DNA from: Thermothelomyces thermophilus ATCC 42464
Lineage: Eukaryota > Ascomycota > Sordariomycetes > Sordariales > Chaetomiaceae
Assembly: GCF_000226095.1 (NCBI RefSeq)
Contig: NC_016477.1
Coordinates: forward strand, 3,596,001-3,660,000
Reading direction: 5' to 3'
Length of the DNA stretch: 64,000 bases
Shown: positions 5,101-41,772 of the stretch, piece by piece
How positions within the stretch are numbered: the first letter of the stretch is position 1
Layout: every line of letters starts with the position of its first letter
Translations under genes and position numbers: made by a program
The notes under the pieces: generated by a model
What the model was told of the DNA's origin: nothing
Database searches by the model: none
Seen by the model: only the letters and a program-made list of their open reading frames with translations

Positions 5101-8060
5101 GCCATAGACAGAACCAAGTTCGTATACTACTAGAAAACCGAGAGACAAGACAAGACTAGGGAAGTACCGAAGGAATATAAAGGATACCTAGCATTTAAAC
5201 CGAAACATCTAGAAGGACTATTAGAACACGGCCTATAGGATTACGAGATCAAGCTTAAGGAAGGAACACGACTAAAGTTCTTCAAGATCTACTATACGAG
5301 CCAGATATAGAACGAAGAACTTAAGCGATATTTAAAGGAAAACCTTTAAAGAGGATATATCTGCCTGTTAACATCGCTAGTAGGCTACCTAATCCTGTTT
5401 GTGCCTAAGAAAGATAGAAAGCTATAGTTATATGTTGACTATCGGCAACTTAATAAATAGACTATGAAAAACCGATACCCGTTACTACTAATCTTACGGC
5501 TCCGAGATCAGTTAGCAGGAGCCTAATATTTTATATATCTTGACTTGCCATCGGCCTATAACTATATATAGATCAAAGAAGGCGACGAGTAGAAAACGGC
5601 CTTTAGGATACCCTATAGCTACTACGAGTACCTCGTTATGCCATTCGGACTTATAAATGCGCCAGCAATGTTTTAAGCCCTGATCGATCAAGCTATCCGA
5701 CCCTTTCTTAACAAATTCGTAGTATGTTATCTCGACGATATACTTATCTTCTCTAAGACGATAGACAAACACTAGAAGTATGTAAAAGTAGTACTAGACG
5801 TACTATATATGTATAAGTTATTAGTTAATAAGGAAAAGAGCGAATTCTATATTAGAAAGATAGTCTTTTTAGGATACAAAATATTCCTAGGATAAATCTA
5901 GATAGAACCTTTAAAGATTAAAGCTATTAAGAATTAGCTACGACCAACGTTAGTTACAGAAGTACAAAGCTTCATCAGATTTACAAACTTCTACCAGATA
6001 TTTATTAGGAACTTTGGAGCGATCATATGACCTTTATATAAACTTACTAGGAAGAACGCTAAATTCCAATAGGAAGAGTAATATAAGCAAGCATTTATAT
6101 AGATCTATAATACCATTACTAAAGATCTAGTACTAGTACTGCCGGACCCTAAGAAGCCATTTAAGGTAGAAATAGACGCTTTAGACTACACTATTGGAGG
6201 ACAATTAGGATAACGAGACAGACAAGGAAAGCTATATCCTATAGCCTTCTTTTTAAAGAAGCTCGATAGACTATGTCTTAATTATCTGATCTATAACAAG
6301 GAACTACTTACAATTATTAAAGCTTTTAAGGAATAGCGACTATACCTTAGTAGCACAATTAAACCAGTATAAGTATATATAGATTATAAGAATTTATAAT
6401 ACTTTACGACGACAAAGGAGCTTAATAGACGACAAATATAATAGGCAGAATTCCTCGCGGAATTTAACTTTAAGATCTGCTACAAGAAGGGCAAAGAGAA
6501 CGTACAAGCGGATATCTTAAGTCAACGAACGGATCATATGGAAGGACAAATAGGAACGATACTACCATTGTTTAAGGAACAGACAGACAGAACGCTATAT
6601 TACGAAATACAGACACCTATAGAAGATAATCTACTCGACTTGTTCCTAGAATACTATATAATCTTTCGAGAAGAAAGGATTAACAAGGCATAGTATCAAG
6701 CAGCACCTAGACTACTAGTACCTAATAGAGTGGAAGAAAGAGATAGAAAACTCTAGTACCGAGGCAAAGCGTAGCTCTATAATAAAGATCAATAGCTGTG
6801 AATGATCTGAGAACTCTACGAGTCAAAACTCGGAGGATACAAAGGAGTTACAAAGACTATCGTATAAGTTAAGAAATATTATGACTTTCTATAGTTAATG
6901 GCACAGGTTAAGGAAGTCGTATAGAACTATGACATCTGTAATCGAAGCAAAATGGTATGATATAAGCTATATAGGCTACTTTAGCCACTACTAACAGTTA
7001 ACAAACTATAGAGTTTAGTTACGATAGACTTTATTATAAAGTTATTAGAATCTAAGGACATAGCTATAAGAGTGACCTACGATAGTATTCTTACTATAGT
7101 AGATTGCCTAACCAAGTAAGCATACTTCTTTCCCTATAAGGAGTCCTAGATAGCAGAACAGTTAGCAAATATAATCTATCGGCAAGTTACATTAGTATAT
7201 GCTTAGCCGTAAGAATAGATTACCGACAGAGACACCAAGTTCGTATCGAAGTTTTAGCAAGCGTTAATACAACGATTAGGCATCAATAGCAAGCTGTTAA
7301 CGGCATATTACCTACAGACTAATAGACAAACGGAGCGATTAAACTAAGTTATTAAGCAGTACCTCTGCTCTTACGTCAACTACTAGCAAAACGACTAGGT
7401 TATACTATTGCTAATAGCATAACTTGCTTATAATACGACGCCAACGGAAACGACCAAAGTCACACCGTTCTTCACGAACTATAGATATAAAGCAGACCTT
7501 AGGCAAGGACCAGAGGTCATAGTGCCAAGAGCAGTAGTCAAAGCAGAACAGATGTACACGCTATATAAGAAGCTTAAAAAGGAACTCGAGTTTGTCAGAA
7601 CTAGAATGAAGAACTACTACGACAAATATAGGCTTGAGGGACCTTGCCTAGAGAGGGGAGACAAAGTCTACCTAATTATACGAAACCTACAAACCAAACG
7701 ACTAAGTATAAAGCTAGACTTTAAAAAGGTTAGACCCTTTATTATCAAAGAAAGAATTTCGACATCTAACTACTAACTATCGTTACTATCATCTATACGA
7801 CTATAGATAGATGTTTTTCATATTTCACTTCTCGAACCAGCACCAAAGAACGCTAAGGTTACTACGTATATCGAAGCAGAGGACAAAGAGGAAGAATAGG
7901 ACGTTAAAGAAATTCTAGATTTATATATCATTAATAGGGAACTATAGTACCTAGTCAAATAGCTTAATTTCGGACTAGAAGACAACTTATAAGAACCTAT
8001 TAAGAATTTAAACTGCCCTAAGAAACTAGAATAGTTCTATCGGCAGAACCCGGATCAGCC
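2114..8060 (+). pseudogene. gag-pol of gypsy A, RIP-degraded
   Basis: Aligned with the better preserved B copy, this region carries a coiled gag N-terminus, a gag core, a zinc knuckle near 3050-3100 whose cysteine codons are TAC/TAT, a long extra segment, protease, RT with the intact Y-L-D-D box at 5728-5739, RNase H around 6150-6530, integrase around 6790-7500 and a chromodomain at about 7870-8050. The presumed start codon at 2114 is ATA rather than ATG, a RIP change. An 84-codon open piece remains at 7522-7776 (integrase C-terminus) but is not a gene. No active product is expected. Confidence 0.85.
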
Positions 8061-8089
8061 AAAGGCAAATCTAGGACAGAACCGAAAAT

Positions 8090-8640
8090 AGCACCCTAGT
8101 TAATAATATCGACGCTACCATTAAGCTATATAACGGCCCCCGATTCCTGCTATTCTACTGCCTCTAATTCGTCTAGACTCGACAAACCCTATATAACTAT
8201 ATCTACCCCCTTCTCTATTAGGAACTCTCGTTACTTACGGACCTAAGTTAGACAGGCTAACGCCTTGGAAGCTTTACATTAATATTCTCATAGCAAGGCT
8301 TTGGCCTCTTTCTCTTCAGCCTTTAAATAACGTTACTTACGTATAATATGATCTACTACATTATAATTAGAGATATGCTCTTATAAGGAAATAGGAACTT
8401 ACAAGAAGAAACTAGAACGCTAGAACCATCGTAAGCACGACCCCGACGTATATAAGCCTCGTAGTAACGAGATTTTTCAATCATCTTATATACTCGGTTA
8501 TACTCTATACAATGAGAACATACTATTACTACGAACCCGTAATCGGAAATAAACTAAGCTAAACGCTTATAACGAATAGATACTAGGGATCTATACACGT
8601 TAGATAGTATAACTGATAGTATGAAGGGTAATAAGAGGCT
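8090..8640 (-). pseudogene. antisense accessory frame of gypsy A (coiled coil), decayed
   Basis: Between the chromodomain and the 3' LTR, the strand opposite to the element carries the same decayed frame seen better in B, C and D: a Cys-containing N-terminal part, then a charged coiled coil ending in an L-D-K-L-E-A-V-E-like stretch. Stops are RIP-type. Limits are approximate. Confidence 0.5.
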
Positions 8641-10588: not shown

Positions 10589-11210
10589 ATGCCGATAGAG
10601 AAATGGAAGTCGCTTTCTATACGTTACTATACTTCCCTTGCTTAGAATATCGCTAAGAATGGTTTTGTCGTTATACCTTGCTCTTAGTACGCGTTACAAG
10701 GCCTTGTCTGTAAAATGATCGTGTATATAAAGCGTTATAAGGCCTATATTTGTCGAGGTCGTTCTTATAATGGCTCTAGCATCCCGCTTTCTTCCTATAA
10801 GCTTATCTCCCTTTTTTTTTTTAAGTATAATTCCTAATATTTATTCTAGTAGATCGTATTCTCTGGGAGCAACGTCATATTAAAGATGCTAAACGTTATA
10901 CTAAACTTAAGTTAGATAAATCCTAACGCCGTCTAGAAGAAGCCTAGCGTAAGTTATCTAAAAAGCTTATACGGCTCTAGCGTCTTCGTTAGCAGAAGGA
11001 GTTTTTAGTGAAGAAAGGTACCGATATAGTAACGCGTAGTTCATCGACCTTAGACAAGTTAGAGGCAGTTAAGCGGTAAGAGTGGCAAGAGGCGCCTACT
11101 ATGCCCTCGTTAGGGATTAATGATACTATCGATGCTATCGACTAGGGCGTCGTCTTTAGTTCTATCCTAGGTTTTCCTTTAGTCGATCCAGGTTCTGCTA
11201 GTAGAACTGT
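10589..11210 (+). pseudogene. antisense accessory frame of gypsy D (Cys motif plus coiled coil)
   Basis: On the strand opposite to element D an ATG at 10589 opens a frame with only RIP-type interruptions. The first about 65 codons contain spaced Cys (or Tyr from TGC to TAC) in a C-x2-Y/C, K-x-Y-K-A-Y, R-G-R-S-Y pattern resembling a short zinc-cluster-like module. A poly-T run near 10809-10820 disturbs the frame. Then a charged helix with L-x2-L-R-x-Q-K-E-F-L leads to a D-K-L-E-A-V-like motif and an acidic tail. The 3' end overlaps the pol end tail to tail. Function unknown. Confidence 0.55.
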
Positions 11211-12952
11211 TCTAATTTCTTACGGCAGTTTAGGTTCTTGATAGGTTCCTATAAGTTATCTTCTAGTCTAAAATCAAGCTATTTAACTAGATACTATAGT
11301 TCCCTATTAATAGTATATAAATCTAGAATTTCTTTGATATCCTATTCTTTCTCTTTGTCCTTTACTTCAATATATATAGCAACCTTAGCATTCTTTGGTA
11401 CTAGTTCGAGAAGTGAAATATGAAAAACATCTATCTATAGTTATATAGATAACGGTAACGATAGTTAGTAGTTAGATGTCAAAATTCGTTCTTTAATAAC
11501 GAAAGATCCGACCTTTTTAAAGTCTAGCTTTATATTTGGTCGTTTGGTTTATAAGTTTTATACGATTAGATAGACTTTGTCTCCTTTCTCTAGGTAAGGT
11601 CCCTCGAGCCTATATTTATTATAGTAGTTCTTTATTCTAGTCTTGACAAACTCAAGTTCCTTTTTAAGCTTTTTATATAATATGTATATTTGTTCCGCTT
11701 TGACTGCTGCTTTCGGTATTATAACCTCTAGTTCTTACCTAAGGTTTACTTTATATCTATAGTTCGCGAAGAACGGTATAACTTTAGTCGTTTCCGTTGG
11801 CGTCGTATTATAAGCGAGTTATACTATTAGTAACAGCATGACCTAGTCGTTTTACTAGTAGTTGACATAAAAGCAGAGGTACTACTTAACAACTTAGTTT
11901 AGTCGCTCTGTTTGTCTATTAGTCTGTAGGTAATATGCCGTTAACAGCTTGCTATTAACGCCTAATCGTTACATTAATGCTTACCAGAACTTCGACGCGA
12001 ACTTGGTGTCTCTGTCGGTGATCTATTCTCGCGGCCAAGCATATACTAATGTAACTTGCTAATAGATTATATCTACTAACTGTTTAGCTATCTAGGACTC
12101 CTTATAGGGAAAGAAGTATACCTATTTAGTTAGGCAATCTACTATAGTAAGAATACTATCATAGATTACTCCTATAGCCATATCCTTAGATTCTAGTAGC
12201 TTTGTAATAAAGTATATTATAACGAAACTCTATAGTTTATTAGCTATTAGCAGTAGCTAAAGTAGCCTATATAGCTTATATCGTACCATTTTACTTTAAT
12301 TACAAATGTCATAGTTTCGTACAACTTCCTTAACTCGTGCCGTTAACTATAGAAAGTCGTAGTGTTTCCTAACTTATATAATAGTCTTCGTAACTCCTTT
12401 ATATCCTCCGAGTTTTGACTTATAGAGTTCTCGAATCATTTATAGCTATTGATCCCTATTATAGATATATACTTTGCCTTAGTACTAGAGTTTTCTATCT
12501 CTTTCTTCTACTCCGTTAGGTACTACTAGTCTAGGTACTACTTGATACTATGTCTTATTAATCCTTTCTTCTCGAAAGATTATATAATATTCTAGGAACG
12601 AGTTAAGTAGATTATCTTCTACGGGTGTCTGTGTTTTATAATATAGCGTTCCGTCTGTTCGTTCCTTAAATAATAGTAATGTTGTTTCCGTTTGTCCTTC
12701 TGTATAATCTGTTTATCGGCTTAAGATATCTGCTCGTATATTCTCTTTGCCCTTCTTATAGCAGATCTTAAAGTTAAATTCCACAAGGAAATCTGCCTAT
12801 CGTATTTGTTATCCGTTAAGCTCCTTTATTATTATAAAATATTATAAGTTCTTACAGTCCATATATACTTATACCGGTTTAATTGTACTACTAAGGTATA
12901 ATCACTATTCTTTAAAAGCTTCGACAATTGTAAGTAGTTCCTTGTCGTAGAT
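11187..12952 (-). pseudogene. gypsy D pol C-terminal part (chromodomain, integrase), decayed
   Basis: Reverse strand. A chromodomain lies near 11,215-11,420, then the integrase core and the zinc-binding H2C2 region up to about 12,600, then the end of RNase H. RIP-type stops throughout. The frame continues in the arm at 20444. Confidence 0.8.
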
Positions 12953-13439: not shown

Positions 13440-14100
13440 CCTTATATTCCTTATATGTGTTTTTCTCCTTAGCCTCTTATTGCCCTTCGTACTATCAGTT
13501 ATACCGTCTAACACGCGCAGATCCCTAGCATCTATTCATTATAAGCGTTTAGCTTAGTTTATTTCTGATCACAGGTTTATAGTAATAGCGTATTCTCATT
13601 ATATAGAGTATAACCAAGTGTGCAAGATAATTGAAAAATCTCGTTGCTACAAGGCTTATATACGTTAGGGTTGTGCTTACGATGGTTCTAGCGTTTTAGT
13701 TTCTTCTTATAAGTTCCCGTTTCCTTATAAGAGTATATCTCTGATTATAATATAGTAGATCGTATTATATATAAGCAACGTCATTTAAAAGCTAAAGAGA
13801 AAGAGGCTAAAGCCTTGCTATAAGAATATTAATATAAAGCTTCCAAGGCATTAGCCTATCTAACTTAGGTCCGTAAACAACGAGAGTTCCTAGTAGAGAA
13901 GGGGGTAAATATAGTTATATAGGGTTTGTCGAATCTAGACAAATTAGAGGCGGTAGAATAGCAGGAATCGGGGGCCGTTATATAGCTTAACGGTAGCGTC
14001 GATGTTATTAACTAGGGTGCTATTTTTGGTTCTGTCCTAGATTTGCCTTTAGCCGATCCGGGTTCTACTAGTGGAACTATTCTAGTTTCTTAGGGTAGTT
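13440..14100 (+). pseudogene. antisense accessory frame of gypsy C
   Basis: Opposite to element C. Around 13,606-13,700 the frame reads Y-N-Q-V-C then R-C-Y-K-A-Y and G-C-A-Y-D-G-S, the same Cys/Tyr spacing as in B and D. After about 13,760 a Lys/Glu-rich coiled coil ends with L-R/V-R-K-Q-R-E-F-L-V-E-K-G and L-D-K-L-E-A-V-E, then an acidic tail overlapping the pol end. Stops are RIP-type. No start codon is certain. Confidence 0.5.
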
Positions 14101-17100
14101 TAAATTCTTAACGGGTTTTTATAAGTTATCTTCTAGTCTAAAATCAAGCTATTTGACTAGGTACTATAGTTCTCTATTAATAATATATAAATCTAGAATT
14201 TCTTTAACGTCCTATTCTTCCTCTTTATCCTCTGCTTCGATATATATAGTAACCTTAACGTTCTTTAGTACTAGTTTAAGAAGTAAAATATGAAAAACAT
14301 CCGTCTATAGTCATATAGATGACGGTAATGATAGTTAGTAATTAGATGTCGAAATTCGTTCTTTAATAACAAAGGGTCCGACCTTCTTAAAGTCTAGCTT
14401 CATGCTTAGTCATTTAGTTTATAAGTTTCATACGATTAGGTAGACTTTGTCTCCCCTCTCTAGGCAAGGTCCCTTAAGCCTATATTTATCGTAGTAGTTC
14501 TTTATTCTAGTCTTGACAAACTCGAGTTCCTTTTTAAGCTTTTTATATAGTACGTACATTTGTTCTACTTTGACTGCTGCTCTCGGCACTATGACCTCTA
14601 GTCCTTGCCTAAGGTCTGCTTTATATCCGTAGTTTGCGAAGAACGGTGTAACTTTAGTCGTTTCCGTTAGCGTCGTATTATAAGCGAGTTATACTATTAG
14701 CAACAGCATAACCTAGTCGTTTTACTAGTAGTTAACATAAAAGCAGAGGTACTACTTAACAACTTAGTTTAGTCGCTCTGTTTGTCTATTAGTCTGTAGG
14801 TAATATGCCGTTAACAGCTTGCTATTAACGCCTAATCGTTACATTAATGCTTACTAGAACTTCGACGCGAACTTGGTGTCTCTATCGGTGATCTATTCTC
14901 GCGGCCAAGCATATACTAATATAACTTGCCAATAGATCACGTCTGCTAACTGTTCTACTATCTAGGACTCCTTATAGGGAAAGAAGTATACCCACTTAGT
15001 CAGGCAATTTACTATAGTAAGAATACTATCATAGGTCACTCCTATAGCTATATCCTTAGATTCTAGTAGCTTCGTAATAAAGTCTATCGTAACTAAACTC
15101 TATAGTTTATTAGCTATTAGTAGTAGCTAAAGTAGCCCGTACGGCTTATATCGTGCCGTTTTGCTTCAATTACAAATATTATAGTTCTATACGACTTCCT
15201 TAACTCGTGCCGTTAACTATAGAAAGTCGTAGTGTTTCTTGACTTGTACGACAGTCTTTATAACCCCTTTATATCCTCTAAGTTTCGACTTATAGAATTC
15301 TCGAATCATTTACAGCTATTGATCTTTATTATAGATATACGCTTTACCTCGGTACCAGAGTTTTCCATCTCTTTCTTCTACTCCGTTAGGTACCAATAGT
15401 CCGGGTGCTACTTAATACTATGCCTCGTTAATCCTTTCTTCTCGAAAGATTACGTAGCATTCTAGGAACGAGTCGAGTAGATCATCTTCCACAGGTGTCT
15501 ACGTTTCGTAATATAGCATTCTATCTGTCTGTTCCTTAAACAATAGTAGTATCGTTCCTGTTTGTCCTTCTATATAATCCGTTTATCGACTTAAGATATC
15601 TACTTATACGTTCTCTTTGCCTTTCTTGTAATAGATCTCAAAGTTAAATTCCGCAAGGAATTCTACCTATCGTATTTATCGTCTGTTAAGCTCCTTTGTC
15701 GTTATAAAGTATCGTAAATTCTTATAATCTGTATATACTTATACTAGTTTAATCGTGCTACTAAGGTATAGTCACTATTCCTTAAAAGCTTTAACAATCA
15801 CAAGTAGTTCCTTGTCGTAAATTAGATAATTAAGATATAGTCTGTCAAGCTTCTTTAAAAAGAAGGCTATAGGATATAGCTTTCTTTATCTATCTCATTA
15901 TCCTAATTGTCCTCTAATAGCGTAGTCTAAAGCGTCTGTTTCTACCTCAAATGGCTTCTTAGGGTCTGGTAGTACTAGTACTAGATCTTTGGTAATGGCA
16001 TCGCGAATCTATATAAATGCTTACTTATATTGTTCTTCCCATTAGAATTTAGCATTCTTCTTAGTAAGTTCGTATAAAGGTCATACGATCGTTCCAAAGT
16101 TCTTAATGAACATCTAGTAGAAGTTTATAAATCCGATAAAGCTTTATACTTCCGTAACTAACGTCAGTCGTAGCTAATTCTTGATAGCTTTAACCTTTAA
16201 AGGTTCTATCCGAATTTATCCTAGGGATATCTTATATCCTAAAAAGACTGTCTTCCTAATATAGAATTCGCTCTTTTCCTTGTTAACTAATAGCTTATAT
16301 ATATATAGCGTGTCTAGCACTACTTTTATATACTTCTGGTGTTTATCTATTATCTTAGAGAAGATAAGTATATTATCGAGATAATATACTATAAATTTGT
16401 TAAGAAAGGGTTAGATAGCTTGATCAATTAGGGCTTAGAACGTTACTAGCGCGTTTGTAAGTCCGAATAGCATAATAAGGTACTTGTAATGGCTATAAGG
16501 TATCCTAAAGGCCGTTTTCCACTCGTCGCCTTCTTTGATCCGTATATAGTTATAGGCCGATAGCAAGTCAAGACATATAAAATATTAGGCTCCTACTAAC
16601 TAATCTCAGAGCTATAAGATTAGCAGTAACAGGTATCGGTTTTTTACAGTCTATTTATTAAGTTGCCAATAGTTAATATATAACTATAGCTTTCTATCTT
16701 TCTTAGGCATAAACAGGATTAGGTAGCCTACTAGTAATATCAACAGGCAGATATATCCTCTTCGAAGGTTCTCCTCTAAATATCGCTTAAGTTCTTCGTT
16801 CTATATCTAGCTCGTATAATAAATCTTAAAGAACTTTAGTCATACTCCTTCCTTAAGCTTGATCTCGTAATCCTATAGGCCGTGTTCTAGTAGTCCTTCT
16901 AGATATTTCGGTTCGAATGCTAGGTATCCTTTATATTCCTTTGGTACTTCCCTAGTCTTGTCTCATCTCTCGGTTTTCTAATAGTATACGAACTTAGTTC
17001 CGTCTATAGCGATGCTAGCGATTTCTCCTATCTTATCCTACTACTCTAATTGCAGTGCTCCGTATTCGTCAACGGAGAGAATAGCTATCGGCGGTTCAGC

Positions 17101-24629: not shown

Positions 24630-24656
24630 GATAAAATAAAGGGAGTAGTAATAACG

Positions 24657-27179: not shown

Positions 27180-27890
27180 TAGGTAATGTCCTTCTTCTAC
27201 TAACTTCCTTTTGCTATAGCTAATCGTATTCCTAGGAATTGTTACAATCTTAAACGTAAATGACATACTATTGTAATTAAGATTAAGTAAGAGGGTTATA
27301 AAGTTACTATACCTTATAAGCGTTATTAGAATATAAAGCTATGAAAGTGTTATATAATAATAGAAGGTTTAAACAAGTATTAAAATTATATTTATATAGG
27401 TAAGAAATATAATAGTCTAAACGTTATAGATACCTATAGGTTCCTTGTTATTTTCCTTTATAATCTTAGGTTACTAACTATCTTAGTTCTTTCGAATTTG
27501 TTAGAGTAAGAGAAGGTTTCAAGGGAGATTACTAAGACCGAGGCATTACTTGCTTAGACGTTAAGCCGTTTAAGTCAATTACGTCGTTTATAGCAATCCC
27601 TACACGATCGTAGTACTAAAGTTTTTCGTCGTGGCGTAGCTTGTCTAGAGGAGGAGGAAGAGCTAGATACTCCTTTGCCGATGTCAGAGACGTAGACCCT
27701 CGTAGGTCAGGCTTAGGCGTTAGGTACTTTTGATATACTTAATTAGAAGTCGATTAGGTTAGATCCTAGTCCTAATTCTAGTAGGTTCCCCTCTTTTTCT
27801 ATTGGAGAATAGGCTTTAGAGCTGGTTTTTATAGCTAGTTAGGATTCTACTAGTAGAACTACTTTAGTTTCTTAAGGCAATTTAGGTTCT
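27180..27890 (+). pseudogene. antisense accessory frame of gypsy E
   Basis: Opposite to element E. The coiled-coil half is readable from about 27,480 to 27,690: L-S-R-L-S-Q-L-R-R-L, then V-F-R-R-G-V and a Glu run, then a D-I-L-N-like acidic tail near 27,735. The N-terminal half is too degraded to read. Same position and architecture as in B, C and D but diverged in sequence. Confidence 0.5.
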
Positions 27891-30800
27891 TAATAGGTTC
27901 CTATAAGTTGTCTTCTAATCCGAAATCAAGCTATTTAACTAGGTACTATAGTTCTCTATTAATAATATATAAATCTAGAATTTCTTTGACGTTCTATTCT
28001 TCTTCTTTATCTTTTACTTTGATATATATAGTAACCTTAGCATTTTTCGGTGCTAGTTCGAGAAGCGAAATATAAAAAATATCTATCTATAGTTATATAG
28101 GTAATAGTAATGATAATTAGTAGTTAGATGTCGAAATTCGTTCTTTGATAACAAAGGGTCTGACCTTCTTAAAGTCTAGCTTTATATTTAGTCATTTGGT
28201 TTATAAGTTTCGTATAATTAGATAGACTTTGTCTCCCCTCTCTAGGCAAGGTCCCTTGAGCCTATATTTATTGTAGTAGTTCTTTATTCTGGTCTTAACA
28301 AACTCGAGTTCCTTTTTAAGCTTTTTATATAGTGCGTATATTTGTTCTGCTTTGACTACTACTCTTAGTACTATGACCTCTAGTCCTTGCCTAAGGTCTG
28401 CTTTATATCCGTAGTTCGCGAAGAATAGTATGACTTTGGTCGTTTTCGTTAGTGTTATATTGTAAGCGAGTTATGCTATTGGTAATAGTATGACCTAGTT
28501 ATCTTGCTAGTAGTTGATATAAGAGCGGAGGTATTGCTTAATAACTTGGTTTAGTCGCTCTATTTGTCTATTAGTCTACAGGTAATATATTGTTAATAGC
28601 TTACTATTGATACCTAATCATTATATTAACGCTTACTAGAACTTTAATATAAACTTAGTATCCCTATTAGTAATCTATTCTTATAGCTAAGCATATACTA
28701 ATGTAACTTGCCAATAGATTATGTTTACTAACTGTTTTACTATCTAGGACTCCTTATAGGGAAAGAAGTATACCTATTTAGTTAGGCGATCTACTATAGT
28801 GAGAATACTATTGTAGATTACTCCTATAGCTATATCCTTAGATTTTAGTAGCTTTGTAATAAAGTCTATTGTAACTAAACTCTATAGTTTATTAGCTATT
28901 AGCAGTGGCTAAAGTAGCCTATACAGCTTATATTATACTGTTTTGCTTCGATTACAAATGTCATGATTCTATACGACTTCCTTAACTTATACCGTTAACT
29001 ATAGAAAGTCGTAGTGTTTCCTAACTTATGTAATAGTCTTCGTAACTCCTTTATATCCTCTAAGTTTCGACTTATAGAGTTCTCGAATCATCTATAGCTA
29101 TTGATCCTGGTCGTAGATATATGCTTTGCCTTGGTACTAGAGTTTCCCTTCTCTTTCTTCCACTTTGTTAGGTACTAGTGGTCCGGGTGCTACTTAATAC
29201 TATACCTCGTTAATCCTTTCTTCTCGAAAGATTATATAACACTCTAGGAACAAGTCAAGTAGATCATCTTCTACGGGTGTCTATATTTCGTAATATAGCG
29301 TTCTGTTTATTCGTTCCTTAAATAACGGTGGTGTTGTTTCTGTTTATCTTTCTATATAATCCGTTTGTCGGCTTAAGATGTCTGCTTATACGTTCTCTTT
29401 GCCTTTCTTATAGCGGATCTCAAAGTTGAATTCCGTAAGGAATTCTACCTATTGTATTTGTCGTCTGTTAAGTTCTTTTGTCGTTATAAAGTATCGTAGG
29501 TTCTTATAATCTATATATACCTATACTAGTTCAGTTATACTGCTAAGGTATAGTCGCTATTCCTTAAAAGCTTTGACAATTATAAGTAGTTCCTTGTTAT
29601 AGATTAGATAATTAAGACGTGGTCCCTGTCTTGTTATCCTAATTGTCTTCTAATGGTATAGTCTAAAGTGTCTATTTCTACCTTAAATGGCTTCTTAGGG
29701 TCTAGTAGTACTAGTATTAGATCTTTAATAATGGTATTATAGATCTATATAAATGCTTACTTATATTATTTTTCCTATTGGAATTTAGTATTCTTCTTAG
29801 TAAGTTCGTATAAAAGTTATACGATTGCTCTAAAGTTCCTAATAAACATTTAGTAGAAGTTTGTAAATCCGATAAAGCTTTATATTTCTATAACTGACGT
29901 CGGTTATAGCTAATTCTTGATAGCTTTAACCTTTAAAGGTTTTATCCGAATTTGTCCTAGGGATATCTTGTATTCTAAAAACACCGTTTTCCTAACATGG
30001 AATTCGCTCTTTTCCTTGTTAACTAATAGTTTATACGCGTATAGCGTGTCTAGCACTGCGTTTACGTACTTCCGGTGTTTGTCTATTATCTTAGAGAAGA
30101 TAAGTATATTATCAAGATAATATACTATAAATTTGTCAAGAAAGGGGTAGATAGCTTGATCAATTAGGGCTTAGAACGTTGCTAGCGCGTTTGTAAGTCT
30201 AAATAGTATGACGAGGTACTTGTAATAGCCATAGGGTATCCTAAAGGCCGTTTTCTACTTGTCGCCTTCATTGATCTATATATAGTTATAGGCTAATGGC
30301 AAGTTAAGATATATGAAATATTAGGCTCCTGCTAACTGATCTCGGAGCTGTAAGATTAATAGTAATAGGTATCGGTTTTTCATAGTCTATTTATTAAGTT
30401 GCCAATAGTCAATATATAACTATAGCTTTCTATCTTTCTTAGGCATAAATAGAATTAGGTAGCCTGCTAGCGATGTCGATAGACAGATATATCCTCTTCG
30501 AAGGTTTTCCTTTAAATATCGCTTAAGTTCTTTATTTTATATCTAGCTTATATAATAGATCTTAAAGAACTTTAGTTATACTCCTTCCTTAAGCTTAATC
30601 TTATAATCCTATAGGCTGTGTTCTAGTAATCCTTCTAGATGCTTTGGTTCAAACACTAGGTATTCTTTATATTCTTTCGGTACTTCCCTAATCTTGTCTC
30701 GTCTCTTAGTTTTCTAATAGTATACGAACTTGGTTCTGTCTATAGCAATACTAGCAATTTCTCCTATCTCAACCTACTGCTCTAATTACAATGCTCTGTA

Positions 30801-30948
30801 TTTGTTAATAGAGAGAACAGCTATTAGTAGTTTAGCTTGTTCCTCCTATCGCGATATCGATATTATTATACTGCCTCTTCTAGAGTCTATAGTAGTCTGC
30901 CTGCTACTATCTATCTCTTACGGTAAATCTATAGGATATACCTTCCCT
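27870..30948 (-). pseudogene. gypsy E pol C-terminal part, decayed
   Basis: Reverse strand: chromodomain near 27,900-28,080, integrase about 28,400-29,200, RNase H about 29,400-29,750, RT about 30,000-30,550 with Y-L-D-N at the catalytic box near 30,110. Many RIP stops. The frame continues beyond B at 38503. Confidence 0.8.
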
Positions 30949-31376
30949 TGTCACGGAAATATGCATACAGATGCCGCCTGAGCCACTGGCACGAACGGGC
31001 CAATCAAGCCAAAGGAATGATGGACCAATCAGGACGGGATCACGCTTGGCAAGAAATGATCCCAACAGAGGATCACTGGCTCACGATATAAGCCAGGTAA
31101 GCCAGTATAAATGATCACCACGACTACTAGTAATCCTAGGAGTATATATACATGTAAATAGTCACTCGTTATAGTGGACTCTAGGAGTTTACCAGTGGTA
31201 ACAATCACAATCACAGTACTCATACCGAGCATTGTTAATTACTGTAAGAGACAACTCTAAGTGTTGTTGTGAACCCTTTGGCTTCACCGAATCCCTTAGA
31301 CGACCCGCCTGCTTGTCCCGCTCAATCCACCTCCGTCTAGACCCTTTTAGAAGAAGTCTGAGTTGGGTTTGTTATA
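30949..31376 (+). repeat. 5' LTR of gypsy element B
   Basis: 428 bp. By eye it differs from the 3' LTR at about 19 positions, all transitions. TATATATA lies near 31143-31150 and the putative self-primer at 31194-31204. The U5 half is shared with the other subfamilies. Confidence 0.95.
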
Positions 31377-31392
31377 CGTTATTACTACTCCC
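31377..31392 (+). promoter_or_regulatory. primer-binding site of gypsy B, candidate self-priming type
   Basis: CGTTATTACTACTCCC follows the 5' LTR directly. It does not begin with TGG as tRNA-primed sites do. Its reverse complement matches an LTR segment at 31194-31204 apart from RIP-type differences. Confidence 0.5.
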
Positions 31393-31403
31393 TTTGTTCT
31401 GTT

Positions 31404-33660: not shown

Positions 33661-33689
33661 AACGCCCGCGTAGCGGCGAGTGGTAGCGT

Positions 33690-36600
33690 AGTACAGGAGG
33701 AACTGGCGTAAGAGACCACTATACCGAGACCTCCTAGCAGAAACATAGGAAATCGCCGTAATCTTTGGACGACGGCGGCAAGACAAGCAACTATGGATAA
33801 TAGCACAATAGAAACGGCACGAAATGCTCATACTAGTAGATAGTAGAGCAGAGATGAACCTGATTTCGCCGACACTTGTGAATTAGCTGCGGATACCCTG
33901 GAGAATGAAGCGGAAGTATAGTATAGTCAAAGGGCCATTTCCGACGTAATAGGTACGTAGAGAGACTAAACCGATCGACATCACTATGGTAGGGAAGACT
34001 ATAGCAGTCGTATTTAGCATCGTAGACATAGGTAACAATAAAGATATAATATTAGGGTTACTATAGTATGAAGATTACGACCCGGACATTAGCTAGAAGA
34101 ATGGTAGCTACCTACGACCCCGAACGGAGTCGTATTCGACCAGCGAGATGGGGAGCGTACAAGGATCGCGAGAGGACGATGCTCAAGGAAAGGCATGTCC
34201 CACGGATCCACCGCAAGAGACAGACAATGGTAGGCAGACCACTACAGACTCTGGAAGAGGCGGTATAACGACATCGATATCGCGACAGGAGGAACAAGCT
34301 GAATCGCCGATAGCTATTCTCTCTATTGACGAATGCGGAGCACTGTAATAGGAGTAGTAGGTTAAGACAGGAGAAATCGCTAGTATCGCCATAGACAGAA
34401 CTAAGTTCGTATACTACTAGAAAACTGAGAGACGAGACAAGACTAGGGAAGTACCAAAGGAATACGAAGGACACCTAGCATTCGAACCGAAATATCTAGA
34501 AGGACTACTAGAACACGGCCCATGGGATCACGAGATCAAGCTTAAGGAAGGAGCACGACTAAAGTTCTTTAAGATTTACTATACGAGCCAGACATAGAAC
34601 GAAGAACTTAAGCGATATTTAGAGGAGAACCTTCGAAGAGGACATATCCGCCCGTCGACATCGTTAGTAGGCTACCTAATCCTGTTTGTGCCTAAGAAAG
34701 ACGGAAAGCTACGGTTATACGTTGACTATCGGTAACTCAACGAACAGACCGTGAAAAACCAATACCCGTTACCGCTGATCTCACGGCTCCAAGATCAGTT
34801 GGCAGGAGCCTAATATTTCACGCATCTTGACTTGCCATCGGCCTACAACTATATACGGATCAAAGAAGGCGACGAGTGGAAAACGGCCTTTAGGACACCC
34901 TATGGCCACTATGAGTACCTCGTCATGCCATTCGGACTTACGAACACGCCGGCAACGTTCTAAGCCCTGATTGATCAAGCTATCCGACCCTTTCTCGACA
35001 AATTTACGGTATGTTATCTTGACGATATACTCATCTTCTCCAAGACGATGGACGAACACCGGAAGCACGTGAAAGCAGTGCTAGACGCGCTATATGCGTA
35101 CAAGCTATCAGTCAACAAGGAAAAGAACAAATTCCACGTCAGGAAAACGGTATTTCTAGGATACGAGATATCCCTAGGATAAATCCAGATAGAACCTTCA
35201 AAGGTTAAAGCTATCAAGAATTGGCCACGACCGACGTCAGTCATAGAAGTACAAAGCTTCATCGGATTTGCAAACTTCTACCGGATGTTCATTAGGAACT
35301 TTGGAGCGATCGCACAACCTTTATACGAACTCACCAAGAAGAATGCTAAATTCCAATGGGAAGAACAACACGAGCAAGCATTCATGTAGATCCGGAACGC
35401 CATTACCAAAGACCTAATACTAGTACTACCAGACCCCAAGAAGCCATTCGAGGTGGAAACGGACGCTTCAGACTACGCCATCGGAGGACAATTAGGACAA
35501 CGAGACAAACAAGGGAAGCTACATCCTATAGCCTTCTTTTCAAAGAAGCTTAACAGACCACGTCTTAATTATCCGATTTATAACAAGGAACTACTTGCGA
35601 TTGTCAAAGCCTTTAAGGAATAGTAACTATACCTCAGTGGCATAATTAAACCGGTATAAGTGTATATAGATCATAAGAACCTACGATACTTTATGACGAC
35701 GAAGGAACTTAATAGATGACAAATACAATGGGCAGAATTCCTTACAGAATTCAACTTTGAGATCCGCTATAAGAAGGGCAAAGAGAACGTACAAGCGGAC
35801 ATCTTAAGCCGACGAACAGATCACACGAAAGGACGAACGGGAACAATACCACCGTTGTTTAAGGAACAAACAGACGGAACGCTACATCACGAAACGCAGA
35901 CACCTATAGAAGATGATCCACTTAACTCGTTCCTAGAATGCTACGTAATCTTTCGAGAGGAAAGGATCAACGAGGTATAGTATCAAGTAGCACCCGGACC
36001 AGTGGTACCTGACGGAGTAGAAGAAAAAGATGGGAAACTCTGGTACCGAGGCAAAGCGTACATCCACGACAAAGATCAACAGCTGCGGATGATTCGAGAA
36101 CTCTACGAGTCGAAACTCGGAGGATACAAAGGAGTCACGAAGACTGTCGCACAAGTCAAGAAACACTACGACTTTCCACAGTTAACGACACGAGTCAAGG
36201 AAGTCGTACGGAACTACGACATCTGCAATCGGAGCAAAATGGCACGATACAAGCCGTATAGGCTACTTTAGCCACTACCAACAGCTGACAAACCATAGAG
36301 TTTAGTTACAATAGACTTCGTTACAAAGCTGTTAGAATCTAAGGACATAGCTACAGGAGTGACCTACGATAGTATTCTTACTATAGTAGATTGCCTGACT
36401 AAATGGGCATACTTCTTTCCCTACAAGGAGTCCTAGATAGTGGAACAGTTGGCAGACATAATCTATCGGCAAGTTACATCAGTGTATGCTTGGCCGCAAG
36501 AATAGATCACCGACAGAGACACCAAGTTCGCATTAAAGTTCTGGCAAGCGTTAATGTAACGATTGGGCGTCAATAGTAAGCTGTTAACGGCATATCACCC

Positions 36601-37349
36601 ACAGACTGACGGACAAACGGAGTGACTAAACCAAGTTGTCGAGCAGTATCTCTATTCTTACGTTAACTACTAGCAAGATGACTAGGTCATGCTGTTACTA
36701 GTAGTATAACTCGCCTACAACACGACGCCAACAGAAACGACCAAAGTTACACCGTTCTTTGCGAACTACGGATATGAAGCAGACCTTAGGCAAGGACTAG
36801 AGGTTACAGTGCCGAGAGCAGTAGTCAAAGCAGAACAGATGTACGCACTATATAAGAAGCTTAAGAAGGAACTCGGGTTTGTCAAAACCAGAATGAAGAA
36901 CTACTACGACAAACACAGGCTCAAGGGACCTCGCCTAGAGAGGGGAGACAAAGTCTACCTGATCATACGAAACTTACAAACTAAATGACTAAGCACAAAG
37001 CTAGACTTTAAGAAGGTTAGACCCTTCGTTATCAAAGAACGAATTTCGACATCTAACTACCGACTATCGTTACCGTCATCTATACGCCTACAGACAGATG
37101 TTTTTCATATTTCGCTTCTCGAACCAGTACCGAAAAACGCTAAGGTTGCTATATATATCGAAGCAGAAGACGAGGAAGAAGAATAGGACATCGAAGAAAT
37201 TCTAGATTTACGTATTATCAACAGGGAACTGTAGTACCTGGTCAAATGGCTTGATTTTGGACTAGAAGACAACTCATAGGAACCAGTCAAGAATTTGAAC
37301 TACCCTAAGAAACTAGAATAGTTCCACCGGCAGAACCCGGATCGACCGT
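33690..37349 (+). pseudogene. pol of gypsy B: protease, RT, RNase H, integrase, chromodomain
   Basis: Protease at about 33,830-34,090 has L-V-D-S-R-A-E-M (family D-S-G-A; Gly changed to Arg by RIP). RT at about 34,640-35,160 has [13 protein letters not shown] and the intact Y-L-D-D box at 35015-35026. RNase H at about 35,440-35,820 has E-T-D-A-S-D and D-I-L-S-R. Integrase at about 36,060-36,800 has a zinc module with one His and one Cys changed to Tyr, then T-I-D-F, T-D-R-D-T-K-F and the H-P-Q-T-D-G-Q-T-E stretch. The chromodomain at about 37,150-37,345 has E-E-I-L-D, Y-L-V-K-W-L and E-P-V-K-N-L. Stops are TAG/TAA/TGA of RIP type. Chromodomain elements target heterochromatin, which fits insertion into other elements here. 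Confidence 0.88.
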
Positions 37350-37947
37350 AGGCACTGGCTCGGACAAAACGGCCAAGTCGGCCTCCGACAAATCCAGGCC
37401 TAAAGAAGACCAGTCAAACGGGACATCAGCACCCTAGGACCGTATATCACTAATAACGCGTACTTCGGACTCCCGCACCCTCCGTTCTTCTGCCTCTATT
37501 TCCTCTAGAGACTATATACCTCGACGAAACAGCTCGGAACCCCGCTCCTTCAAGAAACGTTTCTGGCGACAAAGGCAAGCTAATCGACTGACAGCCGTCT
37601 GAAGTTGAGTCTGAAGGACAAAAAGGGCCTCTTTAGCATCGGCCTCTTCTTGTTCCACACGCTTTTGTTCGGATATAATCTTCGTTACTATAAAGAATTA
37701 GCTACGAACATTAAGGCAACAAACTAGGTTACGAACAAGCAGACGCTACGTCGGAACCATCGTAAGAACGACCCTAACGTACGTACTCGCTACAACGAGA
37801 AGAGCCTGACGCCATACAACAAGCCAAGTTCTGCTTAAAACACCACAAATACGGTATAACGTCTACACCAGAAGAATCAATAAAAGAAGCAAGCGTAGCG
37901 CGCTGTTAGGATTTCGAAGATCGGCGCTTAGAAACACGATCTGCCAT
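37350..37947 (-). pseudogene. antisense accessory frame of gypsy B (Cys motif plus coiled coil)
   Basis: On the strand opposite to B an ATG at 37947 opens a frame of about 85 codons containing C-x5-L-A-C-C, then S-R-C-S-E-Y-V-R-x-G-R-S-Y-D-G, where the Tyr codons are RIP forms of Cys. After an apparent one-base frame slip near 37,700-37,760 a clear coiled coil follows: E-Q-K-R-V-E-Q-E-E-A, then S-R-L-A-C-L, R-Q-K-R-F-L-K-E-R-G-S-E-L-F-R-R-G, a Glu-rich helix and an acidic tail with F-D-W-S-S-L-G-L-D-L. The end abuts the pol stop. The same frame is at the same place in all five elements. I do not know its function. Confidence 0.65.
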
Positions 37948-38059
37948 CTTGTTAGTCACCAGCAGTACGGGAAAAGGGAAAAAATTACGAGGCATACGTG
38001 GAAAGGATGTTGGCGCTATTTGAAACGGCCTAAAAGAGGGCTTTCGGGTCGAAAGCCTC

Positions 38060-38074
38060 GGAGGGAGGGCATCG
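38060..38074 (+). promoter_or_regulatory. polypurine tract of gypsy B
   Basis: GGAGGGAGGGCATCG sits directly before the 3' LTR. The equivalent tract occurs in A, C and D at the same place. Confidence 0.7.
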
Positions 38075-38502
38075 TGTCACGGAAATATGTATACAGATGC
38101 CGCCTGAGCCACTGGCACGAACGGGCCAATCAAGCCGAAGGAATGATGGACCAATCAGGACGGGATCACGCTTGGCAAGAAATGATCCCAACAGAGGATC
38201 ACTGGCTCACGATATGAGCCAGGTAAGCTAGTATAAATGATCACCACAACTGCTAGTAATCCTAGGAGTATATATGCATGTAAATAGTCACTCGTTATAG
38301 TGGACTCTGGGAGTTCACCAGTGGTAACAATTACAATTACAGTACTTATACCGAGCATTGTTGATTACTGTGAGAGACAACTCTAAGTGTTGTTGTGAAC
38401 CCTTTGGCTTCACCGAATCCCTCAGACGACCCGCCTGCTTGTCCCGCTCAATCTACCTCCGTCTGGACCCTTTTAGAAGAAGTCTGAGTTGGGTTCGTTA
38501 CA
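38075..38502 (+). repeat. 3' LTR of gypsy element B
   Basis: 428 bp, TGTCACGG to GTTCGTTACA, followed by the duplicated TCCCT. Confidence 0.96.
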
Positions 38503-41292
38503 TCCCTTAAGTATTGTCTGCTTATAATCTTTATATACTCCCTATCTTACTAGTTAAATATAACTCCGTTTAGAGTTATAGGTAGCTATTATTCTTCTAG
38601 CTAATGTCCGAGTTATGATCTTTATACTATAGTAACCCTAATATTATATCTTTATCGTTACCTATGTCTACGATGCTAAATATAACTACTATAGTCTTCC
38701 CTACTATAGTAATGTCGATTAGTTTAGTCTTCTTATATACCTATTATATTAGAAATAGCCCTTTGACTATGCTATACTTTCGCTTCATTCTCTAGGGTAT
38801 TTGTAGCTAATTTATAAGCATTGGCAAAATCAAGTTTATCTCTGCTCTACTATTTACTAGTACGAGTATTTCGTGCTGTTTCCATTATGCTATTATCTAT
38901 AGTTGCTTGTCTTACCGCCGTTATCTAAAGATTGCGGCGATTTCCTATGTTTCTGCCAGGAGGTCTTGATATAGTGGTCTCTTACGCCAGTTCCTCCTAT
39001 ACTACGCTACTACTTGCTGCTATATAGGTGTTAATGGTTTCCAGGCCCCTCGAAGGGCCCTAACCTGTTTCCTAGGTTAGTGCTAACCTCTTTAGTTATT
39101 TAGCTAATAGTAGCTTTGTCGATCGTACTTATTTCTATAAGCTATTAAGTACTTATAGCTTCCTATTATTAGGTCTGTTTTGCTTTCTATTGTATATACT
39201 ATAGCTTTATCTAAAGTTCCTAAATTCGCGATTTCTTTCCGTCTATATAATAGAGGTAGTCATTGCTCTAGCACAAGTCCTATATGTCTCGTCCTGTTCC
39301 GTAGTACCTAGGCTAGGCTTGTCTTAGAACTATTATAATGCCTTCTAGATTGCGGGCTTCGATCTTCTAGAGCAATTCGGCTGCTCTGTTTCCTATATTG
39401 TAGACCTATTCTATAGGGTGTAAGCTTCTGTCCTCGTTTTCTTGTCGGGTTAGCTAGTAATTGTTTTCGAATTTGTTATAGAAGTGGTATTAGCATCTAT
39501 ATACTATATATTAGAACTAGGGCACTCATATATATGCCTTGTATTAAGAGTATAGTTATATAGCGTTGCCTAGGAGGTATTAGAATTCTTTCCTAAATCC
39601 TTTCTATTATATATAGACTATAGGTACCCTAATGCTAAGGTAGGAATATTTCTTCTAGTAGCTTTCCTATATATACTCGTCTTTTCTATAGTTTATATAT
39701 ATAAACTAGTATTTTAGGTTCTATACATTATTACTAAGTTACTAGTCATCAAGGTACTTAGCATAGCTATTAGGCCTATTATATATTATAGGCTATTCTC
39801 CTTTAATAGTTTCTATAATATATTAGAGTTCCTTTATTTTGTCCCTTATCTTATTACTTTACTAGGTAAGTCGAGTCAAGCGTCTATCCCGTTTATATAG
39901 TTCTATATTAAGTTAGAAGACTTTATTATAGTACTATTCGATTCGTTCTTAGAAGAATAGAATATTAGGTCTAGGTCTTTCGATTCCTTAGGTATTAGTT
40001 GTCTATAATCTATCTCGCTTCTATATAACTATAAAACCCTACTGCCTTAAGGCTAGGAGAATCGAAACTAGCGGTGCATATTCTCCTACTATGTCCTATT
40101 CGGCAAGACCTATCTCTAGGTCTATAGTAACCAGTTCGGAGTACAGTGCTTGTTTGTCTTTACTATTACTATTATATCCGAGACTATCCGTATTACTACC
40201 CTTGTCTTTATAGCCTATAGCCGCTACTTTAATGACGTCCTTAGTAGTTTTGTCGATAGCCGTAATTTCCTTTCTAGGGACTATCTTCTACTCTTTCTTT
40301 GGGCTTTGACATTCTTGCTTATAGTGCCCTTTCTTTCTGTAGTTATAGTAAGTAATATTAGACTTGTCTTTAGTTATCTTCTTCTGGTCCTACTTCTATA
40401 CTATATCTATATCTATAGCTCTAAGGTACGTCCTATATAAGGTATTGATATACGTTTGCTTTTTCTTGTTATTAGCCTTAACTATAGTTCTATTTATTTA
40501 ACCTTGTTTCCACTACTCCTATATATAGAGTCAATTATTGATTCTAATGGCCTATATAATATATTTATCCAGGGTCTTAGGCCGATTATACTTATATAGC
40601 TTGTTTTTAACCTTTTCCTTTAAGCTATTATAAAATAACTATATTAATGCCCTATTATTAAGCTAAGACTTAAGTATATCCTATCTAAATTATATAGTAT
40701 AAGAGGCTACTAACTTAGCCTATCAGAGATTAGCAAGTCTTTCTTATATATAAATCTTCTTATCTTTATTACTAAAAACCTTCTAAAGCTCTTCTTCGAA
40801 ACGGTTATAAGATTAAAAGACTATTTATATAAATATATCTTAGTTATCTTTATCTTCCTTAGTAAGATAGTTATTCTATATAGGCTTAAACTATCTAAGT
40901 ACCTTACCCTCTAGTCTTATAGCTATATAAAGGACTTTAGCTTTATTATCTAGAAACTTATTATCATTAAGCTAGAAGTAAGATTAGAGGTTTATTAGGA
41001 ATCCTATAAGATCTTCTTTAGTTCTTCTATATTTACTAGGTAGTTCGATCTTAATATAGCTTGCTTTAGCGCCCTCGAATGCCTTAATTTTAGTATAGGC
41101 CTTATTAACCAGTTTCTATAAGTGCTTTTCGCCATTCTCGAGTTCCTTAATTCGAGCTTAAGCAGCCTTATCTCTCTAGTCTAACTTCTAGATTCGCTAA
41201 TAGAGTTAACCAAGCTAGGTAAGTAGCTATTTAACTATAATGTTAGTAGCTATATCAATATCAAGGTCGAAGTTACCTCCGTTCTAAACTAT
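38503..41292 (-). pseudogene. gypsy E gag and protease part, decayed
   Basis: Reverse strand: gag start near 41,292, zinc knuckle near 40,310-40,350, extra segment to about 39,000, protease near 38,820-38,860. Stops are RIP-type. Confidence 0.8.
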
Positions 41293-41303
41293 AATAGAAT
41301 AAA

Positions 41304-41319
41304 GGGAGTAATAGCAACG
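41304..41319 (-). promoter_or_regulatory. primer-binding site of gypsy E, variant form
   Basis: Plus-strand GGGAGTAATAGCAACG beside the 5' LTR. Twelve bases (AGTAATAGCAAC) recur in sense in the E LTR (26818-26829; RIP-altered at 41491-41502). The other subfamilies have AGTAGTAA or AGTGGTAA at both places. Confidence 0.5.
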
Positions 41320-41772
41320 TGTGACAAACCTAACTTAGACTTTTTCTAAAAGGGTTTAGACAAAGGTAGATTAAGTAGGACAAGTAGATAGGTCGTCTAA
41401 GAGATTTGGTAAAGCTAAAGGGTTTATAACAATACTAGAGTTATCTCTTATAGTAGTTAGCAATACTTGATATAAGTACTATAATTATAGGTTACTATTA
41501 CTAGTAAACTCCTAGAGTTTACTATAATAAGTGACTATTTATATATATATATACTTCTGTCGGTTGCTTATAGTCCCCTTCTATCCTGTCCTTAGATCGC
41601 CTTTAGTAGCTAGCTATCCTCTGCTATCTTTCCCTTTTTGGCAATTGTTCGCCTATGGTAGCCCGTGCTCCCTAGCGATCCCGTGTCAGCCTCGCTTCGT
41701 ACCCTTCTTGATTGGTGGTTCATTTAGCCTGCTATACCTAACCGGGTCGCGGTATATGGTTGGCTTGTGATA
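41320..41772 (-). repeat. 5' LTR of gypsy element E
   Basis: 453 bp, TGTGACAAACC to CTTGTGATA, followed by TAAAT. Confidence 0.93.

What the first reader, a model, noticed from the sequence alone, without database searches (positions are those of the whole stretch)
37350..37947. Antisense accessory gene frame between pol and 3' LTR in all five gypsy elements
Opposite to each element (A 8090-8640, B 37350-37947, C 13440-14100, D 10589-11210, E 27180-27890) lies a frame with a spaced Cys motif, a coiled coil (R-Q-K-R-F-L-K-E-R-G-like) and an acidic tail, ending tail to tail with pol. It persists although LTR subfamilies have diverged, and its cysteines are altered only by RIP-type TGC to TAC changes. 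Standard Ty3/gypsy elements have no such gene. It could encode an antisense-expressed regulator or give double-stranded RNA over the pol end.
Basis: partly seen in the sequence, partly recalled or inferred. Interest (0 to 1): 0.8.

Follow-up and report, generated by a model that had tools for sequence, protein, structure and literature searches.

The report
Swappable antisense gene in fungal retrotransposons
A family of jumping genes in a fungus carries, on the strand opposite to its own genes, a real and often spliced extra gene that comes in several very different versions on an otherwise nearly identical element, as if each version came with its own matching control region.

Summary
The antisense frame is a real gene. 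In all five window elements it starts 120-132 nt from the 3' LTR and runs into the end of pol. Low-RIP copies elsewhere carry a fifth, intronless type (F) with an open 212-codon antisense frame in 15 of 15 copies.

In the stretches compared, gag and pol of all types are one backbone, differing almost only by RIP-type transitions. The antisense gene differs by 17-31% transversions between types and at most 0.9% within a type. The U3 of the LTR switches with it in 85 of 88 copies. Antisense genes at this place are already known (brtn of Boty; plant Retand, Grande), so the kind is not new. I found no report of the intron or of linked antisense-gene/U3 cassettes in nine paper searches. Best mechanism: a coiled-coil regulator acting on its own U3. 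That step is inferred, not shown.

The parts
37737..37947 (-). B: antisense gene exon 1 (start ATG at 37947-37945; Cys motif C-x2-C-x6-C-x8-C-x2-C-x6-C); last base is codon position 1 of the split codon
   Evidence: ATG in 18 of 20 B copies, ATA in 2
37688..37736 (-). B: intron, 49 nt here (50 in 5 of 20 copies), phase 1; donor T|GTTCGT (weak at +3), branch CTRAY, acceptor TAG
   Evidence: GT kept in 15 of 20 copies, TAG in 18 of 20, CTRAY in 20 of 20
37287..37687 (-). B: exon 2, coiled coil and acid-biased tail; the 3' end overlaps the pol tail
   Evidence: (57 aa helix, pLDDT 95.6)
8403..8610 (-). A: exon 1
   Evidence: start column ATG 5, ATA 24 of 29 A/C copies
8356..8402 (-). A: intron, 47 nt, T|GTAAGT ... 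CTAAT ... TAG
8000..8355 (-). A: exon 2
13501..13708 (+). C: exon 1
   Evidence: mapped through the A/C alignment
13709..13755 (+). C: intron
13756..14111 (+). C: exon 2
10589..10796 (+). D: exon 1
   Evidence: ATG 25, ATA 5 of 30 D copies
10797..10849 (+). D: intron, 53 nt here, 52-62 nt among 30 copies
   Evidence: 13 distinct indels in the intron, none in exon 1 or exon 2
10850..11241 (+). D: exon 2
27216..27435 (+). E: exon 1 (start placed from a low-RIP E copy that reads MADRIPRN; reads ATA in the window copy)
27436..27486 (+). E: intron, 51 nt; T|GTAGGT kept in 1 of 13 copies and in low-RIP copy L111; TACTAAC branch; TAG
27487..27893 (+). E: exon 2
37998..38058 (.). B: leader next to the PPT, little changed among A-E types (1-5 transversions in 58-59 nt between types; F differs more, 5-6 in 47), between the two variable blocks
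38075..38261 (+). B: U3 of the 3' LTR, type-specific (its first part is shared by A and B), linked to the antisense gene type
38262..38502 (+). B: R-U5 of the 3' LTR, nearly the same in all types
34964..35620 (+). B: reverse transcriptase and RNase H pieces of pol
   Evidence: PF00078, PF17919, PF17917
30949..31374 (+). B: 5' LTR (95.8% identical to the 3' LTR at 38075-38500)

Best explanation
It is an antisense, protein-coding accessory gene of a chromodomain Ty3/gypsy element, about 187-212 aa: a Cys-rich N-terminal domain, a helical coiled coil and an acid-biased tail. Four of the five types seen keep a phase-1 spliceosomal intron; it can survive because the genomic RNA is the other strand and is not spliced there (inference). 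Shown here: coding constraint, intron signals, a shared stop site, open frames in low-RIP copies, and discrete gene types linked to U3 types on one gag-pol backbone. Inferred: antisense transcription starts in or next to the 3' LTR. The protein dimerises through the coiled coil, enters the nucleus, and acts on the U3 promoter of its own type through repeated short sites (GATCGCA in F, GATCAC in A/C). It thereby tunes or limits transcription of its own family, so that different cassettes behave as separate regulatory (immunity-like) groups. Cassettes probably spread by template switching in reverse transcription: pol end and R are shared, so gene and U3 are swapped together.
For: Gene: intron at the same place and phase in 4 types, with joined lengths divisible by 3 and a shared stop site; 13 distinct indels in the D intron and 1 in the B intron, against 0 in exon 1 of four types and 1 in exon 2; true frame best in 10 of 12; TGA stops 16 of 804; 212-codon open frame in 15 of 15 low-RIP F copies (18 of 20,000 shuffles match it in any frame); F matches B exon 1 at BLASTP E 5e-8, 42% identity, with all six Cys aligned; F is intronless and reads on from the exon-1 homology into the coiled coil. 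Cassette: transversions 0.1-0.4% in 2 kb of gag, 0.2-1.9% at the pol end, 0 in 801 bp of integrase among two F, one E, one D and the B copy, but 17-31% in the antisense gene between types and 0.0-0.9% within types. One edge is sharp at the pol tail, the other about 50 nt upstream of the start codon; U3 varies, R-U5 hardly does. Gene type equals U3 type in 85 of 88 copies. Repeated U3 motifs: F GATCGCA x5 (0 of 500 shuffles), A GATCAC x6 (1 of 500), D GTGATAA x3 (10 of 500), B TGAGCCA x3 (23 of 500).
Confidence: 0.45

Rival explanations
1. The antisense gene is real, but its diversity and linkage to U3 are a by-product of recombination. One successful gag-pol backbone repeatedly picked up old 3' ends by template switching between pol and R, and the protein does something unrelated to U3 (for example nuclear entry of the integration complex).
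For: Edges at the pol tail and at R-U5; a published fungal parallel in crapaud, where LTR subfamilies differ in U3 while R-U5 is conserved and recombination is proposed (PMC10787394 section 8); 3 of 88 copies with mismatched gene and U3.
Against: Does not by itself explain repeated type-specific U3 motifs (strong only in F and A), nor why a little-changed leader lies between the two diverged blocks.
Confidence: 0.35
2. The antisense protein counters a host defence (silencing, RIP, heterochromatin) and its types diverged in an arms race; U3 types are linked by position or by the same race.
For: Very strong divergence between types against a nearly constant backbone; type F is the low-RIP, recently multiplied one: 15 copies with 9 variable columns in about 1,260.
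Against: Codon position 2 has the fewest transversions in 12 of 12 protein-guided comparisons and 9 of 12 DNA-guided ones, which is constraint rather than diversifying change. Copies of every type, F included, were RIPped, so none protected fully. Nothing tests a host target.
Confidence: 0.12
3. The region works as RNA: convergent transcription makes double-stranded RNA over the pol end, and the frame is incidental.
For: The arrangement is convergent; judged by the first sense stop fixed in all copies, the antisense gene overlaps pol by about 125 nt in A and 167 nt in B, and by 194 nt in F.
Against: Frame, stop, intron and Cys columns are kept across types whose DNA is only 44-58% identical over the gene; RNA-only function needs no reading frame.
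Confidence: 0.05
4. Chance or strand-mirrored open frame opposite a sense gene.
For: Antisense frames can mirror constrained sense frames; the last part does overlap pol; in F a sense frame, not that of pol, is open for 175 of the 212 mirrored codons.
Against: All three sense frames have fixed stops in each of the four RIPped groups; in F the sense frames have 2, 4 and 6 stops in the block against 0 in the antisense frame; pol ends within the overlap. The splice signals lie on the antisense strand, in register with this frame.
Confidence: 0.01

Closest known systems
brtn, antisense gene of Boty-like Ty3/gypsy elements (Botrytis cinerea, Sclerotinia; Zhao et al. 2011, not read)
   Same: Antisense, between pol and 3' LTR of a chromodomain gypsy element, in several related elements (passages in PMC8365987, PMC7264820, PMC4227169). 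A Monilinia transcript resembles Pol and BRTN (passage in PMC5987419).
   Different: No intron and no linked U3/gene cassettes are mentioned in the passages I saw. The BRTN sequence was not at hand, so homology is untested.
[quoted passage not shown]
   Same: Same place and orientation; suspected nuclear or DNA-binding role (PMC7264820 section 7; PMC11963269 passages).
   Different: Pfam finds no TRP28 (PF04195) here; the word intron does not occur in the main text of PMC11963269.
crapaud of Podospora anserina
   Same: Gypsy element with chromodomain whose LTR subfamilies differ in U3 with conserved R-U5, proposed to arise by recombination (PMC10787394, passages and section 8).
   Different: Its figure legend names two ORFs and the word antisense does not occur in its main text.
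Ty1 copy-number control by p22 (yeast)
   Same: A retrotransposon-encoded protein limits its own family, with subfamily specificity (abstract starts of PMC4599808, PMC12530519 in a search listing).
   Different: p22 is a sense-strand Gag fragment that acts on particles, not an antisense gene linked to U3.
HTLV HBZ/APH-2 antisense genes
   Same: Antisense gene acting in the nucleus on viral transcription (HBZ and APH-2 named in PMC11963269; the bZIP coiled coil is recalled).
   Different: No sequence relation tested; different host and fold.
Group I introns with antisense homing genes interrupted by spliceosomal introns
   Same: Antisense gene in a mobile element with a spliceosomal intron (PMC9548176, title and abstract start in a listing).
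   Different: Unrelated element and protein.

Membership tests
Antisense accessory genes (aORF-3R; [quoted passage not shown]
   counted among scored hits only
brtn of Boty | Chromodomain Ty3/gypsy host element | tested here: met
   Chromo PF00385 E 6.1e-13 in a low-RIP F copy; RT, RNase H, integrase zinc domain and gag in B
brtn of Boty | Sequence homology to BRTN | not testable with these tools
   Zhao 2011 not held; the papers found to name BRTN gave no sequence in the passages I saw
Zn(II)2Cys6 (Gal4-type) cluster | C-x2-C-x6-C-x(5-12)-C-x2-C-x(6-8)-C spacing (recalled pattern) | tested here: inconclusive
   Fits type B (6 of 6 columns seen as Cys in some copy). In D one and in A/C two of the six columns are never Cys in the copies aligned. 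E and F have x8 and x7 in the first gap.
Zn(II)2Cys6 (Gal4-type) cluster | Pfam PF00172 at its gathering score | tested here: not met
   13.4 bits against cut-off 21 in 1 of 6 pieces; no hit for F
Zn(II)2Cys6 (Gal4-type) cluster | Two-zinc fold | tested here: inconclusive
   AlphaFold pLDDT 55.5; PDB profile search gave 3 weak chains, none a Zn2Cys6 protein
Plant Retand TRP28 antisense protein | PF04195 domain | tested here: not met
Immunity-cassette-like system (works like, not a member) | Trans-acting gene and cis region vary together on a constant backbone | tested here: met
   that the gene acts in trans is itself inferred
Immunity-cassette-like system (works like, not a member) | The protein acts on its cognate cis region only | not testable with these tools
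   needs binding or reporter assays

The most novel reading that the evidence does not exclude
The elements carry interchangeable immunity cassettes. Each antisense gene makes a DNA-binding coiled-coil regulator matched to short repeated operators in the U3 of the same cassette, so copies of one type control each other while a copy with a new cassette escapes. Old cassette types are kept apart by this frequency-dependent advantage while gag-pol sweeps through as one backbone. This would be a retrotransposon counterpart of phage heteroimmunity, made from an antisense, spliced gene.
Probability: 0.3. Interest if true: 0.9.

Novelty: new variant of a known kind. Interest (0 to 1): 0.72.

Why it matters
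The function of antisense genes in LTR retrotransposons is an open question (PMC7264820, PMC11963269). Here one genome holds at least five natural versions of such a gene on a nearly constant element, each with its own U3, and one of them in open, low-RIP copies. That makes the question directly testable: the versions are ready-made swaps. The conserved intron is strong sequence evidence that selection acted on an antisense mRNA and not only on DNA or sense RNA. If the matching of gene and U3 is functional, competition and copy control among retrotransposons would follow the logic of phage immunity groups.

Tried and rejected
Chance open frame: rejected (stop spectrum, frame scores, intron, open F frames). 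A single unspliced frame in the RIPped types: rejected for A, B, C and D; in E frame alone does not decide, the splice signals do. Filing the Cys domain as Zn2Cys6: not done, Pfam cut-off not met. Other weak Pfam hits, all below cut-off, were set aside as chance: DGF-1_N, HAUS1 and EspC; likewise weak PDB hits (PEP3 E 0.036; ferredoxins E 0.24). Relatives in viral contigs: none in three scans. In bacterial/archaeal contigs: one 33% match in a Mesorhizobium contig (L117) whose DNA I looked at and take as chance without further test. I found no way to search other fungi: the prokaryote and viral collections gave no relative and the genome tool says G000 has no relatives, so cross-species tests were not made. 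AlphaFold of exon 1 was too poor to use. Candidate-intron counting as a control was uninformative for D, whose donors read AT in 29 of 30 copies. Paper searches listed no paper that I recognised as describing an intron in such a gene or gene-plus-U3 cassettes; I saw listings and abstract starts for most, and most subscription journals, including Zhao 2011, are not held.

Results against my reading: E-type U3 has no significant repeat, and D and B only at one k-mer length; 3 of 88 copies mismatch; two exon-1 frame tests (B-E, D-E) fail; codon position 2 is not lowest in 3 of 12 DNA-guided comparisons; F against A/C exon 1, F against E (both exons) and D against E exon 1 score like or near shuffles when pieces are compared directly; F has a 175-codon mirror sense frame. 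All copies were top-scoring hits, which biases against indels, and the pol-anchored set was chosen by nearness to B, which favours low-RIP copies.

Full report
SETTING. The window lies in G000:C6:3596001-3660000, a 38,744,216-base genome in 7 contigs. From memory this size and contig number fit Thermothelomyces (Myceliophthora) thermophilus ATCC 42464; no call names it. Bases 1 to about 42,000 hold nested Ty3/gypsy elements: A, C inside D, and B inside E (LTR pairs and interrupted copies). They are RIPped (TpA/ApT 1.33-1.58 against 0.68 in the 44-64 kb flank). Pieces of B hit Pfam gag, reverse transcriptase, RNase H and integrase zinc domains; a low-RIP copy hits Chromo. The element is therefore a chromodomain gypsy element.

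THE ANTISENSE GENE IS REAL. Six-frame reading shows the Cys motif and the coiled coil opposite each element, but in A, B, C and D in two different frames. I fetched copies genome-wide and aligned 92 rows in four groups: A/C 29, B 20, D 30, E 13; one short copy (L030) was dropped. At a homologous place all four groups show a phase-1 intron. A/C: T|GTAAGT, CTRAY, TAG, 47 nt. B: T|GTTCGT, CTRAY, TAG, 49-50 nt. D: T|GTGAGC (one copy) or, in low-RIP L112, T|GTAAGC, CTAAT, TAG, 52-62 nt. E: T|GTAGGT, CTAAC, TAG, 51 nt (L112 itself has lost the AG acceptor). The donor G is kept in 28 of 92 rows (A/C 11, B 15, D 1, E 1) and reads A in the rest; it follows T, so this is the TpG to TpA change of RIP. 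Intron lengths differ modulo 3 between types, yet removal joins the same protein each time, and the joined length is divisible by 3 down to a stop six codons after a conserved LVS(Q) in A, B, D and E.

TESTS OF CODING. Indels: 13 distinct in the D intron and 1 in the B intron; 0 in exon 1 (187 nt, four groups) and 1 in exon 2 (300 nt, four groups); the copies are best hits, so indels are under-counted everywhere. Stops: TGA is 16 of 804 in the antisense frame; the two other antisense frames give 118 of 1157 and 171 of 1191; the sense frames give 48 of 819, 45 of 1175 and 157 of 1104 (summed over exons and groups). With between-type DNA alignments (8 random copy pairs each) the true frame has the best BLOSUM62 mean of six frames in 10 of 12 comparisons; B-E and D-E exon 1 fail. 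Codon position 2 has the fewest transversions in 12 of 12 protein-guided comparisons (biased by the alignment) and 9 of 12 DNA-guided ones. Cys columns: in B all six are Cys or Tyr only.

OPEN COPIES. 15 of the 20 carry a cassette with no blastn match to the antisense genes or U3 of A-E but with the same R-U5; 4 are E type and 1 is D type. In this type F the antisense gene is one open frame of 212 codons, MADRV...NSGS, in 15 of 15 copies; these copies differ at 9 columns in about 1,260, so they count as nearly one sequence. 18 of 20,000 shuffles of the block leave any frame free of stops; the mirror sense frame has 2 stops and an open run of 175 codons. In the whole genome the F protein finds 71 places (150 of 163 candidates scored): 15 full-length without stops, the others with stops except one short partial match. 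F is intronless. Its first 79 residues match B exon 1 at 42% identity, E 5e-8, with the six Cys aligned, and the rest scores above all of 200 shuffles against exon 2 of A/C, B and D, but not of E.

CASSETTES. Between window elements gag (2 kb) differs by 0.1-0.4% transversions and the pol end (1.7-1.8 kb) by 0.2-1.9%, while the antisense gene differs by 16.7-29.8% in all nine pairs of different type and by 0.0% in the tenth, A-C. In 801 bp of integrase, two F copies, one E, one D and B show 0 transversions in all ten pairs. Within a type the antisense gene differs by 0.2% (E) and 0.9% (D) transversions; between sequences of different type, by 16.7-31.0%. The fine map shows zero or near-zero transversions up to B 37,348, a jump over the antisense gene to about 50 nt upstream of its start codon, a little-changed leader at about 37,998-38,058 (in F 5-6 changes in 47), a variable U3 whose first part A and B share, and a nearly constant R-U5. 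Gene type and U3 type agree in 85 of 88 copies with both held; 24 more copies had no U3 in the held DNA; the exceptions are L030, L034 and L053. So at least five discrete cassettes ride on one backbone. Since transitions are inflated by RIP, only transversions are used for this claim.

WHAT IT DOES. The B coiled-coil piece is a single helix at pLDDT 95.6; the Cys domain gave no usable model and no Pfam family at cut-off. The last 70 residues (of the F protein, and of one exon-2 piece per other type) are more acidic than basic in five of five types, by only 7 against 6 in D. U3 repeats: GATCGCA x5 in F (0 of 500 shuffles), GATCAC x6 in A (1 of 500 at k=6, top 7-mer 33 of 500), D and B only at k=7 (10 and 23 of 500; k=6 153 and 127), none in E. 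This anatomy resembles a small DNA-binding regulator linked to its own promoter sites. The step from anatomy to function is inference, and position alone can explain the linkage (see rivals).

COMPARISON. Antisense genes at this place are known: brtn in Boty (passages), and the plant Retand, Grande and RIRE2 aORFs. U3-only diversification on conserved R-U5 is published for crapaud. What I did not find in print (Zhao 2011 not held) is a spliceosomal intron in such a gene, or antisense gene and U3 varying together on one backbone. From memory, proteins like F are common as hypothetical proteins in ascomycete databases; no call tests this.

CHANGES MADE ON CHECKING. 

Noticed in passing
window 1-42000: Nested insertions: C (12953-20443) sits inside D (about 10016-25096) and B (30949-38502) inside E (26647-41768).
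   Followed up: partly
L093-L098, L102-L110: 15 nearly identical, hardly RIPped type F insertions beside many RIPped relatives (about 50 RIPped F matches): a recent burst that escaped RIP, or one after the last sexual cycle.
   Followed up: partly
window 38001-38058: A stem-loop-like inverted repeat (CTTTCG...CGAAAG, seen by eye in F and B) in the leader just upstream of the polypurine tract, in a stretch little changed among otherwise diverged cassettes.
   Followed up: no
L034, L053, L030: Copies whose antisense gene type and U3 type disagree: possible recombinants or nested insertions.
   Followed up: no
   Followed up: no
G000:C7:3759268-3759426: Weak stop-free match (E 5e-4, residues 93-145) to the F coiled coil; perhaps a host gene or chance.
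   Followed up: no
U3 of F, B, D and E copies: CCAATCA boxes beside the type-specific repeats.
   Followed up: no
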